DNA from: Clostridiales bacterium
GTDB lineage: Bacteria; Bacillota; Clostridia; Saccharofermentanales; Saccharofermentanaceae
DNA: 36,254 nt
NCBI GenBank assembly: GCA_017964005.1
Contig: JAGCSR010000025.1
Span: forward strand, 1-36,254
Direction: 5' to 3'
Shown: positions 21,358 to 33,937 of the stretch, one piece after another
Layout: every line of letters starts with the position of its first letter
How positions within the stretch are numbered: position 1 is the stretch's first letter
Notes under the pieces: generated by a model
Database searches by the model: none
What the model was told of the DNA's origin: nothing
Seen by the model: the letters and a program-made list of their open reading frames with translations, nothing else
Position numbers and translations under genes: made by a program

Positions 21358-22110
21358 ATGCTCAAACTTGCGATATACGGTAAAGGCGGGATCGGGAAAT
21401 CCACTGTGACTGCAAATCTTGCTGCGGCTTTTGCCTCAAAGGGGAGGAAAGTCGTGCAGATAGGGTGCGATCCCAAGGCTGACTCTACGACGAACCTGTT
21501 GGGAGGCAATACTGTAAAGCCTGTTATCGACATGCTCCGTGACGAAGCTGATATTGATACATATGAAGATATCTCCCGTGTCGGATTCGGCGGAGTAGTA
21601 TGTATTGAGACAGGCGGCCCCACCCCCGGTCTGGGCTGTGCAGGCAGAGGCATAATCGCGACTTTCGATCTTATCGATGAGCTTGCTCTGTTCGATAAAG
21701 TAAAACCTGATGTAGTTCTCTACGATGTGTTGGGAGATGTCGTTTGCGGCGGTTTTGCAGCTCCCATAAGACAGGGCTATGCCGAGAAGGTCCTTATAGT
21801 TACATCGGGCGAGAAGATGGCTCTTTATGCAGCCAACAATATAATCACGGCAGTAAAGAATTTCGAGGAAAGAAGTTATGCAAGAGTAGAGGGACTTGTC
21901 TTAAATCACAGGAATATTCCTGATGAGGACAGGAAAGTCGAGGCCTTTGCTAATGAACATAACGTTCCTATCGTAGGAAGGATCCCGAGAAGTGATGATA
22001 TCAATCTTTGTGAAGATCAGGGCATGACCGTAATCGAGGGCGCGCCTGATTGCGAAGCTTCCCATTGTTTTAAGAAACTTGCAGAAGATCTCCTTAAAGG
22101 AGAAGGCTGA
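21358..22110 (+). CDS. NifH-like Fe protein (nitrogenase reductase family)
   Basis: 250 residues from ATG 21358 (AAGGAG six bases upstream; an earlier in-frame ATG at 21307 lies inside the leader and is rejected). P-loop GKGGIGKST at 8-16, CDPKADST switch I region, the cluster cysteines C94 (GGPTPGLGCAGRG) and C130 (YDVLGDVVCGGFAAPIR), and Arg97 in the position that is ADP-ribosylated in NifH. It should be a homodimer bridging one [4Fe-4S] cluster and passing electrons on ATP hydrolysis to a D/K-type partner. It lacks the C-terminal tail of diazotroph NifH (about 275-290 residues). It is the only Fe protein here, so it likely serves both D/K pairs. Whether it is nearer to NifH, BchL, CfbC or other branches needs a tree. 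Confidence 0.92.
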   Translation: MLKLAIYGKGGIGKSTVTANLAAAFASKGRKVVQIGCDPKADSTTNLLGGNTVKPVIDMLRDEADIDTYEDISRVGFGGVVCIETGGPTPGLGCAGRGIIATFDLIDELALFDKVKPDVVLYDVLGDVVCGGFAAPIRQGYAEKVLIVTSGEKMALYAANNIITAVKNFEERSYARVEGLVLNHRNIPDEDRKVEAFANEHNVPIVGRIPRSDDINLCEDQGMTVIEGAPDCEASHCFKKLAEDLLKGEG

Positions 22111-22112
22111 TA

Positions 22113-23399
22113 ATGGCAAGAGCAGTAAGTTATAAAGCGGGCTATATAGCATCTTTGGGCAAGGACAATATTCCTTCAGAATTGAAGGGCAATGAGGGCC
22201 TTGTCTATAGTTCGCCGGCAACGCTTGCATATAACTCCCCGGGCGCGGAAGGATTCGGCGTTAAGAGGGCAGGGCTTGCCGTGCCCGAATCCGTCATGCT
22301 GATCGTAGCTCCGGGGTGCTGCGGAAGAAATACCAGATATGTAACGAAAAACCCTGAGTATAACGTCAGGTTCTTCTATCTGATGATGGACGAAACGGAT
22401 CTTGTTACTTCAAGGCATCTTAAGAAGATCCCTGAGGCGGTTAAGGAGATAGTTGAATTCTGCAAAGTCAGGCCAAAGGCCGTAATGATATGCATAACCT
22501 GTGTTGATGCGCTGTTGGGAACAGACATGAAAAGAGTCTGCTCCAAGTGTGAAGAACTCCTGGAAGGCGTCCGTGTCGCGCCCTGCTATATGTATGCATT
22601 AACGCGTGAAGGCAGGAGGCCTCCGATGGTGGATGTAAGGCAGCAGATATATTCTCTGCTTACCCCCTCCATCAGGAAAGGAAATGCCATAAATCTTCTT
22701 GGATTCTTTGCTCCCGTAGATCCTGACTGTGAGATGTTTGAACTCTTAAAGAGTGTCGGTTTTGACGATATTAGGCAGATAGGAACTTGTAAGACATATG
22801 ATGAATTCCTCAAGATGAGCCAGGCAAACCTTAACCTCGTCCTCAACAACGAAGCAAATCCTGCAGCAGAAGACATGTATAACAACTTGAAGATCCCTTA
22901 TGCGGGGCTTACAAGAGTCTACGGGATAGATCAGGTTGCAAAACAATATAAGGCTTTGGGACAGATCCTGGGTGTTGAGATAGAGGATTCGGTCTTCTAC
23001 GAAGAGACGGAAGATAAGATCAGGGCTTTCATGGTAAAATTCAAAGGCAGGAAAGTAAATATCGGTGAATGCATAAATGCCAATCCTTTCGAACTTGCGC
23101 TGACTCTTACAAGATACGGCATGAAGGTCGGTGAGATCTATGCGACTCTCTCTCCGGAGCACTTTGTCTATGTTAAGAAACTGGCTGAGTTATCCCCTGA
23201 TACTATGCTCCTTTGCAATCTTGATCCTTCCATGATCAATTATTCGGCATCAGAATATGCTCCTGATCTGACTCTCGGCAAGGATGCCGCATACTATTGC
23301 CCAGATGTTCCGAACATCCCCTGGAATTCGGATGTTCAGCCTTATGGCTACAAGGGAATAGTCAAGCTCATCAATGCGATAGAGGAGGCTTTGTCATGA
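22113..23399 (+). CDS. Nitrogenase component 1-like, D-type subunit (pair 1)
   Basis: 428 residues, two bases after the Fe protein gene. The order of motifs follows the NifD/NifE/BchN superfamily: an N-terminal PESVMLIVAPGCCGRN block (C69, C70) in place of the GPVGC cluster cysteine, then MICITCVDALLGTD (C127, C130) in place of the TC-x-x-LIGDD cluster cysteine, then a domain with DCEMFELLKSVGF and a C-terminal YGYKGIVKLINAIEEAL. The Cys that would correspond to NifD C62 is not found, so a full P-cluster looks unlikely and a simpler [4Fe-4S] site is more plausible, as in dark protochlorophyllide reductase. No clear FeMo-cofactor Cys/His pair is visible. Its stop overlaps the next start (ATGA). 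Confidence 0.85.
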   Translation: MARAVSYKAGYIASLGKDNIPSELKGNEGLVYSSPATLAYNSPGAEGFGVKRAGLAVPESVMLIVAPGCCGRNTRYVTKNPEYNVRFFYLMMDETDLVTSRHLKKIPEAVKEIVEFCKVRPKAVMICITCVDALLGTDMKRVCSKCEELLEGVRVAPCYMYALTREGRRPPMVDVRQQIYSLLTPSIRKGNAINLLGFFAPVDPDCEMFELLKSVGFDDIRQIGTCKTYDEFLKMSQANLNLVLNNEANPAAEDMYNNLKIPYAGLTRVYGIDQVAKQYKALGQILGVEIEDSVFYEETEDKIRAFMVKFKGRKVNIGECINANPFELALTLTRYGMKVGEIYATLSPEHFVYVKKLAELSPDTMLLCNLDPSMINYSASEYAPDLTLGKDAAYYCPDVPNIPWNSDVQPYGYKGIVKLINAIEEALS

Positions 23400-32886: not shown

Positions 32887-32887
32887 T

Positions 32888-33937
32888 ATGGAGAATATCG
32901 AGAAACTGATAGATAAACTCTGCGAGACATCAGAGCTTACGGCTGATGAATATAAGGAGATACTCGCATCTTCGGACCATGATGAATACCTTGCCTCCAA
33001 AGCCAGAGAGGTTGCCCAAAGGATATTCGGCAAAGATGTCTATATCCGCGGGATTATCGAATTCTCAAATTATTGTAGGAATGACTGTTATTATTGCGGC
33101 ATCCGCGCTTCCAATAAGTATTGTGAGCGCTACCGCATGACTCCTGATGAGATCATAAGATGCGCCGATTCGGGGTATGACATAGGTTTTCGGACGTTCG
33201 TACTTCAGAGCGGAGAAGATCTTACATATTCAACGGAAGACATTTGCAATATCGTCTCTTCGATAAAATCCCGTCATCCTGACTGTGCGGTGACTTTATC
33301 GATAGGAGAGAAGAGCCGTGAGGAATATCAGGCTTACTATGACGCGGGCGCAGACAGATACCTTCTGCGTCACGAGACATACAATAAAGATCACTACGGG
33401 ATGCTCCATCCTGATAAGATGTCCTGGTCAAGCAGGATCAGATGTCTTTATGATCTTAGGGAGATAGGATATCAGACAGGCTGCGGGATCATGGTGGGAA
33501 CTCCGGGCCAAACCCTTGATCATGTTGTTGAAGACCTTGTGTTCATGAAAGGTTTTGAACCCCATATGATAGGTATCGGGCCTTTCCTTCCGGCTGCGAA
33601 TACCCCCTTTGCGGACTGTCCGGCAGGAGATGTTGCTCTGACGCTGAGGCTTTTGTCTGTTATAAGGCTCATGCTGCCCAAAGTCCTGTTGCCTGCGACA
33701 ACGGCGCTCGGGACTGCTGAAGCTTTAGGCCGGGAGAAAGGAATCTTAGCCGGTGCTAATGTAATCATGCCCAATCTGTCGCCGGTGGAGAACCGCGGCA
33801 AATATCAGCTCTACGACGGTAAGATCTGCATATCCGATGATGCGTCCCTTTGTTCAAGATGCATCTCGGCACGGCTTAAGTCCATAGGCTATCAGGCTGT
33901 GACAGGCAGGGGGGATCACCCGGATAAGGCGTTATAA
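32888..33937 (+). CDS. hydE: [FeFe]-hydrogenase maturation radical SAM enzyme HydE
   Basis: 349 residues. Radical SAM cysteines C63-x3-C67-x2-C70 (CRNDCYYC), glycine-rich GEKSREEY and LRHETYN segments, and near the end the optional second-cluster cysteines CX7CX2C (CISDDASLCSRC), as in Thermotoga HydE. HydE works on the HydG product to shape the diiron cofactor. No hydG is in the window. A long gap follows to the next gene with no convincing terminator, so this is the last gene of the operon by position. Confidence 0.95.
   Translation: MENIEKLIDKLCETSELTADEYKEILASSDHDEYLASKAREVAQRIFGKDVYIRGIIEFSNYCRNDCYYCGIRASNKYCERYRMTPDEIIRCADSGYDIGFRTFVLQSGEDLTYSTEDICNIVSSIKSRHPDCAVTLSIGEKSREEYQAYYDAGADRYLLRHETYNKDHYGMLHPDKMSWSSRIRCLYDLREIGYQTGCGIMVGTPGQTLDHVVEDLVFMKGFEPHMIGIGPFLPAANTPFADCPAGDVALTLRLLSVIRLMLPKVLLPATTALGTAEALGREKGILAGANVIMPNLSPVENRGKYQLYDGKICISDDASLCSRCISARLKSIGYQAVTGRGDHPDKAL

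What the first reader, a model, noticed from the sequence alone, without database searches (positions are those of the whole stretch)
21358..33937. Nitrogenase-like H-D-K, D-K locus fused into one operon with Hyp and Hyd cofactor-assembly genes
Twelve genes lie in one tightly coupled run: most junctions overlap (ATGA or 11 bases) and the longest gap is 14 bases. They encode one NifH-like protein, two D/K-like pairs, HypF-C-D-E, a TM1266 protein, HydF and HydE. Nif-type proteins are not normally mixed with CO/CN-iron assembly factors. The arrangement suggests an enzyme or scaffold in which an ATP-driven Fe protein and D/K-type proteins act on, or carry, a CO/CN-iron cofactor. Motifs are seen; the joint function is inference. 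The substrate is unknown and N2 fixation is not implied.
Basis: partly seen in the sequence, partly recalled or inferred. Interest (0 to 1): 0.93.

Follow-up and report, generated by a model that had tools for sequence, protein, structure and literature searches.

The report
Nitrogenase-like replacement for hydrogenase maturase HydG
Many gut and rumen bacteria that carry [FeFe]-hydrogenase have no gene for HydG, the enzyme known to make the carbon monoxide- and cyanide-bearing iron of its cofactor, and carry this run of nitrogenase-like, Hyp and Hyd genes, which very likely makes that iron unit by a different route that is still untested.

Summary
The twelve-gene run is real and its core is conserved in gut and rumen Clostridia and Coriobacteriia. 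It is probably not a new substrate reductase; it very likely replaces HydG in H-cluster maturation. The window's genome (86% complete) has HydA, HydE, HydF, but no HydG. Of 76 HydE+ family genomes, 35 have only such a locus (27 full type, 8 a Hyp-free type), 39 only HydG, 1 both (fragment), 1 neither. Of 50 further locus-bearing genomes (49 new), 0 have HydG, 50 have HydA; HydG is in 241 of 393 class genomes. HydA is up to 99.5% identical between the two groups. At one syntenic site TM1266-HydE-HydG-HydF has become TM1266-HydE-HydF in a locus-bearing genome. NiFe hydrogenase was not found in 36 of 36 family genomes. Blautia luti and B. schinkii, HydG-less here, have hydrogenase activity in print. 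The mechanism (Hyp builds Fe-CN-CO; H, D/K and D'/K' make the HydE substrate) is inferred.

The parts
21358..22110 (+). H: NifH-like Fe protein (250 aa); P-loop GKGGIGKST and the two cluster cysteines (C94, C130) kept
   Evidence: Fer4_NifH 291 bits; nifH 303 bits but under the 394 cut-off, CfbC 302 under 402; nearest solved chain 1cp2 NifH; cysteines invariant in 74 rows
22113..23399 (+). D: nitrogenase component-1-like protein (428 aa), own clade
   Evidence: Oxidored_nitro 113 bits; nifE model 64 bits against cut-off 505; model pLDDT 84.5 matches NifK/NifE chains; C69, C70, C127, C130 invariant in 70 rows
23396..24412 (+). K: short nitrogenase component-1-like partner of D (338 aa)
   Evidence: Oxidored_nitro 47 bits; C37 and C42 invariant in 63 rows
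24409..26706 (+). HypF (carbamoyltransferase; start of cyanide synthesis)
   Evidence: five HypF-type domains
26709..26921 (+). HypC, with N-terminal MC.G
   Evidence: HupF_HypC 73 bits; motif
26918..27967 (+). HypD, with CGTHTH and GPGCPVC
   Evidence: hypD 367 bits, cut-off 193; motifs
27957..28961 (+). HypE, with C-terminal PRIC cysteine
   Evidence: hypE 398 bits, cut-off 252; C334 invariant in 61 rows
28976..29227 (+). TM1266-family putative regulator of [FeFe]-hydrogenase systems
   Evidence: hyd_TM1266 102 bits, cut-off 61
29214..30530 (+). D': nitrogenase component-1-like protein (438 aa as drawn, 432 from the later start 29232)
   Evidence: Oxidored_nitro 56 bits, no NCBIfam match; model pLDDT 86.6 matches NifK/NifEN chains; one clade with D' of the Hyp-free g3 operons; C56, C60, C120, H122 conserved in 55 rows
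30512..31687 (+). K': nitrogenase component-1-like partner of D' (391 aa as drawn from GTG; an ATG at 30527 is also possible)
   Evidence: Oxidored_nitro 71 bits; C42 invariant in 56 rows
31684..32886 (+). HydF: H-cluster scaffold GTPase
   Evidence: GTP_HydF 538 bits, cut-off 326; CxH...HCxxC cluster motif
32888..33937 (+). HydE: radical-SAM maturase that takes the HydG product in the known pathway
   Evidence: rSAM_HydE 534 bits, cut-off 255; CX3CX2C

Best explanation
This locus very likely replaces HydG: it is predicted to make the CO- and CN-bearing iron unit of the [FeFe]-hydrogenase H-cluster with Hyp proteins and two nitrogenase-like D/K pairs instead of with the radical-SAM enzyme HydG. 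Steps. (1) HypF and HypE would make cyanide from carbamoyl phosphate and HypC-HypD would assemble an Fe-CN-CO unit, as they do for NiFe hydrogenases (inferred from intact motifs; chemistry recalled). (2) The Fe protein H, with D-K and D'-K', would use ATP-driven low-potential electrons to turn that unit into the substrate of HydE, most likely by adding CO made from CO2 and by acting as a NifEN-like scaffold that hands the unit on (inferred; the least certain step). (3) HydE and HydF, which are kept, would then build the two-iron subcluster and load HydA as usual. What is shown here: HydG and the locus exclude each other with one fragmentary exception among the genomes searched, HydE, HydF and HydA stay, HydG is missing from the operon site where relatives keep it, no NiFe hydrogenase was found in the family genomes tested for Hyp to serve, and D' forms one clade with the D' of a second, Hyp-free HydG-less system.
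For: Own genome: one HydA, HydE and HydF, no HydG over the cut-off (86% complete). Genus g1, 68 genomes: D in 28, HydG in 25, D and HydG together in 0; HypD over its cut-off in 27 of 28 D+ and 0 of 25 HydG+ genomes (one HydG+ genome has a fragment, see against). Of 52 HydE+ g1 genomes, 27 have the locus only, 24 HydG only, 1 both (fragment), 0 neither. Genus g3, 20 HydE+ genomes: 12 HydG only, 8 with an H-D'-K' operon only. 50 locus-bearing genomes chosen to lie outside the family (one, L073, proved to be G078 again): HydG 0 of 50, HydA 50 of 50, against HydG in 241 of 393 genomes of the class. 25 of the 28 D+ genomes gave a HydA to compare; 24 of 25 are at least 93.8% identical to one of a HydG+ genome, G054 against G006 99.5%, and 25 of 25 have all three H-cluster motifs. 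Between the two states the best HydA tree needs 5 changes, and well-supported branches force 3 for the locus. Synteny: between the same flanks, TM1266-HydE-HydG-HydF in G006, G063, G082; TM1266-HydE-HydF in G045; HydE-HydF in G058, G060, G084; in six D+ loci no HydG remnant beyond the HydE match. In G015 HydA sits directly upstream of the whole run. NiFe large subunit: 0 of 36 family genomes, 3 of 44 others with only a 70-residue partial match. H-cluster chemistry from PMC12752695 passages. B. luti makes H2, with hydrogenase activities of 14 to 644 mU/mg over six growth conditions, and B. schinkii is cited there at about 23,000 mU/mg (PMC12773636 passages); the genomes of these species here carry the locus and no HydG (L060 = G103, L087 = G124). 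Fe proteins alone can reduce CO2 to CO (PMC9571451 passages).
Against: No biochemistry. G087 (74% complete) has HydG and a 3,068-base contig with HypD(end)-HypE-TM1266-D'-K'(start): real co-occurrence or a binning contaminant. G007 (80% complete) has HydE without HydG or the locus. Two of 28 D+ g1 genomes (G090, G095) have no HydA match and a third (G096) only 24 residues, all 75-85% complete; HydF is over its cut-off in 25 of 28 and in 7 of the 8 g3 genomes. 15 of 68 g1 genomes have HydA but no HydE, HydG or D and no HydF over the cut-off, so HydA alone does not prove a need for H-cluster synthesis. Genomes are related, so Fisher values overstate the case; independent pairs on supported branches of the HydA tree were only 3 (p 0.25). 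The Hyp unit (recalled: two CN, one CO) does not match the HydG product (one CN, two CO), so a ligand step is missing from the model. The g3 version lacks HypD. G002 has a HydG match just over the cut-off together with a HypF-D-E set of another kind and no D, so Hyp genes also occur in this family outside such a locus. In five D+ genomes read, HydE is only 58-66% identical to HydE of HydG+ genomes, so its substrate may differ. Published H2 activities are for the species, not shown for the very strains searched.
Confidence: 0.82

Rival explanations
1. The D/K complexes are themselves the end product: a new nitrogenase-like enzyme whose active site is a CO/CN-iron cofactor built by Hyp and HydE/F.
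For: D and the Hyp genes lie together in order in 59 of 61 loci that hold D, HypFCDE and D'; D and K keep conserved cysteines.
Against: Does not predict that the locus and HydG exclude each other, nor that HydG is lost from the old hyd operon when the locus is there, nor that HydA is unchanged. These genomes would then have no known route to mature HydA.
Confidence: 0.06
2. The Hyp genes serve a NiFe hydrogenase and only happen to lie beside Nif-like and Hyd genes.
For: HypC-F are the usual NiFe maturation proteins.
Against: NiFe large subunit not found in 36 of 36 family genomes tested and only as 70-residue partial matches in 3 of 44 others; none of the twelve genes is HypA or HypB; gene order kept across lineages.
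Confidence: 0.02
3. HydG is not replaced: these organisms use an atypical HydG/ThiH-like protein or free CO and cyanide from the cell, and the locus does something else that merely co-varies.
For: PMC9431212 proposes an atypical HydG or scavenged diatomics for HydG-less acetogens and reports that HydE+HydF alone give about 1% activation (passages). 22 of 50 outside genomes, B. luti and B. schinkii included, have a 169-206 bit match to the HydG model, below its 312 cut-off.
Against: Only 1 of 28 D+ g1 genomes (G066) has such a match, and several HydG+ genomes (G033, G053, G073, G003, G021 and others) have it beside true HydG, so it looks like another paralogue (ThiH-like by score and length; not classified by a call). 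Scavenging does not explain why the same gene set is there when HydG is not.
Confidence: 0.06
4. A refinement of the main reading rather than its opposite: only D'K' plus an Fe protein is the HydG replacement; the H-D-K-HypFCDE half is an upstream supply that can be swapped for import of a precursor, as in genus g3.
For: All 8 HydG-less, HydE+ g3 genomes have TM1266-FecCD-ABC ATPase-H-D'-K'-binding protein and no HypD; six of these D' proteins were put in a tree and form one clade with D' (support 100), apart from D and from the D of an operon that coexists with HydG.
Against: What the importer carries is unknown; it could be iron or a chelate, with CO and CN made otherwise.
Confidence: 0.3

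Closest known systems
HydG in the HydEFG pathway of [FeFe]-hydrogenase maturation (PMC12752695, passages)
   Same: Predicted place in the pathway upstream of HydE and HydF; next to TM1266 in operons; alternative to it across genomes
   Different: No sequence relation: up to nine proteins of NifH, component-1 and Hyp families instead of one radical-SAM tyrosine lyase
HypCDEF arm of NiFe-hydrogenase maturation
   Same: HypD and HypE over their NCBIfam cut-offs, HypC and HypF with their Pfam domains, motifs intact
   Different: No HypA or HypB among the twelve genes, no NiFe hydrogenase found in the family genomes tested
NifEN scaffold / NifH pair of FeMo-cofactor assembly
   Same: Fold of D and D' models matches NifK, NifE and NifN chains; an Fe protein in the operon; a cofactor-assembly setting
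   Different: Far below the NifE cut-off (64 bits against 505); D' has no NCBIfam match
Methylthio-alkane reductase (MarHDK), BchLNB, CfbCD
   Same: Same superfamily; 9fmg and 8vqh among structural matches of D'
   Different: D, K, D', K' below every NCBIfam cut-off; operon partners are Hyp and Hyd

Membership tests
HydG (TIGR03955) | Profile match over 312 bits | tested here: not met
   No HydG over the cut-off in the own genome; best match is HydE itself, 86 bits
NifH / CfbC / BchL / BchX iron proteins | Score over the curated cut-off of the equivalog model | tested here: not met
   nifH 303 of 394, CfbC 302 of 402, BchL 207 of 345, BchX 192 of 331
NifH / CfbC / BchL / BchX iron proteins | P-loop and two cysteines for the bridging 4Fe-4S cluster | tested here: met
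   GKGGIGKST; C94 and C130 invariant in 74 rows and aligned with NifH
Nitrogenase NifDK / NifEN | NifD, NifK, NifE or NifN profile over cut-off | tested here: not met
   Best nifE 64 (D), 30 (K), 42 (K'), none (D'); cut-off 505
Nitrogenase NifDK / NifEN | Component-1 fold | tested here: met
   D and D' models match NifK/NifE/NifN chains, E 1e-12 to 1e-18, TM about 0.6-0.7; K and K' not modelled
CfbD, BchN/BchB, MarD | Own profile or clade | tested here: not met
   CfbD model 20 bits of 268 (D), BchB 24 of 490 (K'); no Mar, BchNB or CfbD sequences were in the tree, so clade placement against them was not tested
HypCDEF maturation proteins | Profiles and motifs (HypC MC.G, HypD CGTHTH, HypE PRIC C-terminus, HypF domains) | tested here: met
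NiFe-hydrogenase maturation system | A NiFe hydrogenase in the genome | tested here: not met
   0 of 36 family genomes, G000 included; 3 of 44 others partial only
NiFe-hydrogenase maturation system | HypA and HypB | tested here: inconclusive
   Not among the twelve genes; not searched genome-wide
[FeFe]-hydrogenase H-cluster maturation pathway | HydE, HydF and a HydA with H-cluster cysteines in the same genome | tested here: met
[FeFe]-hydrogenase H-cluster maturation pathway | Product supports active HydA | not testable with these tools
   Needs expression or knockout; species-level activity in print only

The most novel reading that the evidence does not exclude
Nature has a second, tyrosine-free way to make the CO/CN iron of the H-cluster: Hyp proteins make the cyanide-bearing iron, nitrogenase-like Fe protein and D/K pairs supply CO from CO2 and remodel the ligand set, and D'K' works as a NifEN-like scaffold that feeds HydE. 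In a sister genus the same D'K'H core is fed by a dedicated importer whose ATPase carries the TM1266 domain, which would mean that an iron-CO/CN compound, or its precursor, is scavenged from other microbes.
Probability: 0.35. Interest if true: 0.97.

Novelty: categorically new. Interest (0 to 1): 0.93.

Why it matters
HydG is treated as one of three required H-cluster maturases (PMC12752695). If this reading holds, many gut and rumen bacteria (species of Blautia, Roseburia, Coprococcus, Eubacterium ramulus, Olsenella and Saccharofermentans carry the locus) build the H-cluster without it, and a nitrogenase-like machine takes part in organometallic Fe-CO/CN assembly, linking the maturation chemistries of [FeFe] hydrogenase, [NiFe] hydrogenase and nitrogenase. 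It could answer the published puzzle of missing hydG in acetogens (PMC9431212; the locus was not looked for in those species here), give a new part set for making hydrogenases, and make a function for an orphan branch of the nitrogenase superfamily directly testable.

Tried and rejected
NiFe-hydrogenase reading of the Hyp genes: tested and dropped. Atypical HydG: tested with the HydG model; only a sub-threshold paralogue was found, absent in 27 of 28 D+ g1 genomes. Altered H-cluster pocket in HydA of D+ genomes: looked for in three motifs only, not seen. HydG remnants at the syntenic site: none beyond the HydE match in six loci. One HypD fragment in a HydG+ genome (G087) was followed up and turned out to be part of a D' locus on a 3-kb contig; it is counted as a both-case. 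The D search would miss a locus whose D is off the assembly, as in G087; for the other 24 HydG+ g1 genomes the guard is the HypD search. In g3, two HydG+ genomes (G028, G042) have broken D-like matches that I assigned to the type that coexists with HydG from their scores only, without looking at context. RNA, tRNA and promoter scans gave nothing that bears on the finding. A tree against true CfbCD, BchLNB and MarHDK sequences was not made; curated cut-offs were used instead. Neighbours of HydA in two maturase-less genomes (ten proteins) showed no obvious maturase. Paper searches for nitrogenase-like with HydE/HydF/HypD/HydG, for HydG with Blautia, for nitrogenase-like with Roseburia, and for alternative or HydG-less maturation found no report of this link in what was listed; most listed papers were seen as listings only, five were opened by passages and one more. 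The library lacks most subscription papers and preprints.
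Full report
The run is as described. Twelve open frames lie at 21358-33937 on the + strand with junctions of +2, -4, -4, +2, -4, -11, +14, -14, -19, -4 and +1 bases for the starts used here; later starts of D' and K' shorten the two longest overlaps to a small gap and an ATGA. Profiles name them H (NifH-like), D, K, HypF, HypC, HypD, HypE, TM1266, D', K', HydF and HydE. H stays below every curated Fe-protein cut-off and D, K, D', K' below every component-1 cut-off of NCBIfam, although D and D' fold like NifK/NifE/NifN in models of pLDDT 84.5 and 86.6. 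Key residues are intact: P-loop and cluster cysteines of H, MC.G of HypC, CGTHTH of HypD, the C-terminal cysteine of HypE, the radical-SAM motif of HydE and the cluster motif of HydF. D' has three conserved cysteines (C56, C60, C120) and K' one (C42), enough for one 4Fe-4S cluster at the subunit interface (inferred).

The missing piece is HydG. The genome holding the window (2.46 Mb, 61 contigs, 86% complete) has one HydA with all three H-cluster motifs, HydE and HydF in this run, and no HydG: the best match to the HydG model is HydE itself. I therefore asked whether the locus and HydG replace each other.

The same 98 genomes of the window's family were searched for HydG, D, HydA, HydE, HypD, HydF and all component-1 proteins. 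In the window's genus (g1, 68 genomes) 28 have D, 25 have HydG, none has D and HydG, 15 have neither. HypD is over its cut-off in 27 of the 28 D+ genomes (the missing one, G090, is 75% complete) and in none of the 25 HydG+ genomes. One HydG+ genome, G087 (74% complete, 180 contigs), had a sub-threshold HypD fragment; looking at it, I found a 3,068-base contig with HypD(end)-HypE-TM1266-D'-K'(start). It is either a true co-occurrence or a binning contaminant, and I count it as both. Of the 52 HydE+ genomes of g1, 27 have only the locus, 24 only HydG, 1 both and 0 neither; of all 76 HydE+ genomes of the family, 35, 39, 1 and 1 (G007, 80% complete), the 35 being 27 of the full type and 8 of the Hyp-free g3 type (Fisher 6e-14 and 2e-19, without correction for kinship). 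HydA was found in 26 of the 28 D+ genomes, one of them (G096) by 24 residues only, and HydF over its cut-off in 25; the gaps are in incomplete or split assemblies (G062, G084, G090, G095, G096). Other nitrogenase-like pairs in the same genomes occur with and without HydG, so the pattern is not a property of all such genes. In genus g2, G002 has a HydG match just over the cut-off and a HypF-D-E set of another kind without D.

A second genus repeats the pattern with a different gene set. In g3 (23 genomes) 20 are HydE+: 12 have HydG, and 8 have none but carry, in all 8, TM1266 - FecCD permease - ABC ATPase - H - D' - K' - binding protein; the ATPase has a TM1266 domain at its C-terminus, shown by a Pfam profile in G016, and the other seven ATPases match that protein or the window's TM1266. 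These genomes lack HypD. Six of their D' proteins were put in a tree and form one clade with D' of the full loci (support 100), apart from D, from a third D type that coexists with HydG in g3, and from the other Nif-like proteins used. So the D'K'H core tracks the absence of HydG, while Hyp plus H-D-K or an importer looks like the exchangeable supply side (inference).

Outside the family, one scan of a species-level genome collection found 429 stretches encoding D relatives; the best 80 became loci, among them Blautia luti, B. massiliensis, B. schinkii, Coprococcus comes, Roseburia faecis, Eubacterium ramulus, Faecalicatena contorta and Olsenella massiliensis. D, HypF, HypC, HypD, HypE and D' are all on 61 of the 80 stretches and in that order in 59; a second H (H') is on 24 of 80; K was not found over 45 bits in 9 of the 61 and TM1266 in 12. 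I tested 50 of these 80 genomes, chosen as unlike the family; one (L073) proved to be the family genome G078 again. HydG is over the cut-off in 0 of 50 and HydA in 50 of 50. HydG is over the cut-off in 241 of 393 genomes of the class, whatever their HydA.

Two observations make simple co-variation unlikely. First, HydA is the same enzyme on both sides: 24 of 25 HydA proteins from D+ genomes are at least 93.8% identical to one from a HydG+ genome, at best 99.5% over 597 residues; the 25th, of G015, is 73%. On the best HydA tree the locus/HydG state changes 5 times, and well-supported branches force 3 (3 independent pairs are too few for significance on their own). Second, synteny shows the swap: between the same flanking genes, G006, G063 and G082 have TM1266-HydE-HydG-HydF; G045 has TM1266-HydE-HydF with 33 bases between HydE and HydF; G058, G060 and G084 have HydE-HydF; G037 has HydE alone with HydF now in the D locus. 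All five of these HydG-less genomes carry D. HydE and HydF left at that site remain 84-90% (six genomes) and 87-91% (four genomes) identical to those of HydG+ genomes, which suggests that they still receive the same kind of substrate; in G018 HydE is 80%, and five other D+ genomes read have a more diverged HydE (58-66%). In G015 HydA lies directly upstream of the whole run.

The Hyp proteins do not seem to serve a NiFe hydrogenase: its large subunit was not found in 36 of 36 family genomes tested and appears only as a 70-residue partial match in 3 of 44 others (G114 among the 44 is G078 again).

Function in living cells: PMC12773636 (passages) reports H2 formation and hydrogenase activities of 14 to 644 mU/mg over six growth conditions in B. 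luti and cites about 23,000 mU/mg for B. schinkii; HydG and maturation are not mentioned. The genomes of these species here have the locus and no HydG. PMC9431212 (passages) reports hydG not found in five of eight acetogenic Clostridium and no straightforward explanation. I did not test whether those species have this locus.

Mechanism. In the known pathway HydG makes an Fe(CN)(CO)2-cysteine synthon from tyrosine, HydE reduces and dimerises it, HydF carries the product to HydA (PMC12752695 passages). Here HypF/HypE would supply cyanide and HypCD an Fe-CN-CO unit (recalled chemistry: two CN, one CO). Compared with the synthon it has one cyanide too many and one CO too few, so a CO-providing, ligand-changing step is needed. 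A NifH-like protein is a plausible source, since Fe proteins can reduce CO2 to CO (PMC9571451 passages), and that review also describes the Fe protein's part in metallocluster assembly. That D-K and D'-K' divide the work into CO supply and scaffold is a guess.

What remains open: the genomes with HydA but no maturase found, the cargo of the g3 importer, the role of TM1266, and G087. Confidence is about 0.82 that the locus stands in for HydG and about 0.35-0.5 for the chemical detail.

Noticed in passing
G022, G031, G055, G056, G061, G064, G065, G072, G074, G083, G089, G091-G094 (genus g1); G005, G010, G012; G008: Genomes with a HydA match but no HydE, HydG or D and no HydF over the cut-off, several over 95% complete. 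13 HydAs of the g1 group were read: 13 of 13 keep the first two cysteine motifs and 12 of 13 the third as I wrote the pattern. Either an unknown maturation route, imported cofactor, or unused apo-protein.
   Followed up: partly
L019-L022, L190-L193 (genus g3): TM1266 - FecCD permease - ABC ATPase (with a C-terminal TM1266 domain, shown by profile in L020) - H - D' - K' - periplasmic binding protein: an importer bound into a HydG-less hydrogenase system.
   Followed up: partly
L027, L194-L197 (genus g3): A further H-D-K operon with its own FecCD and binding-protein importer genes, in genomes that do have HydG (and in G030, which does not): an orphan nitrogenase-like system with another role.
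   Followed up: no
L060, L066, L068, L087, L090, L097, L108 and 17 other loci: A second Fe protein H' accompanies D' in 24 of 80 loci, so the window's lineage seems to share one H between two D/K pairs.
   Followed up: no
window 34918-36254: Just downstream lie two frames that look like NfnA/NfnB-type ferredoxin:NADP oxidoreductase subunits (label recalled, no profile run); they could tie into low-potential electron supply.
   Followed up: no
window 11047-13173 and 14094-16262: Two similar neighbouring genes for large surface-type proteins with leucine-rich repeats, a Big-like region and S-layer-like repeats at the C-terminus (read from sequence only).
   Followed up: no
G015 C4:147457-148476 and C5:93220-94236; G066 C84 and C133: Two HydE genes in one genome, one of them in the locus in G015; possible division of labour between HydEs.
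   Followed up: no
G087 C174 (L208): A HydG+ genome with a 3,068-base contig that carries the middle of the locus: the one both-case seen.
   Followed up: partly
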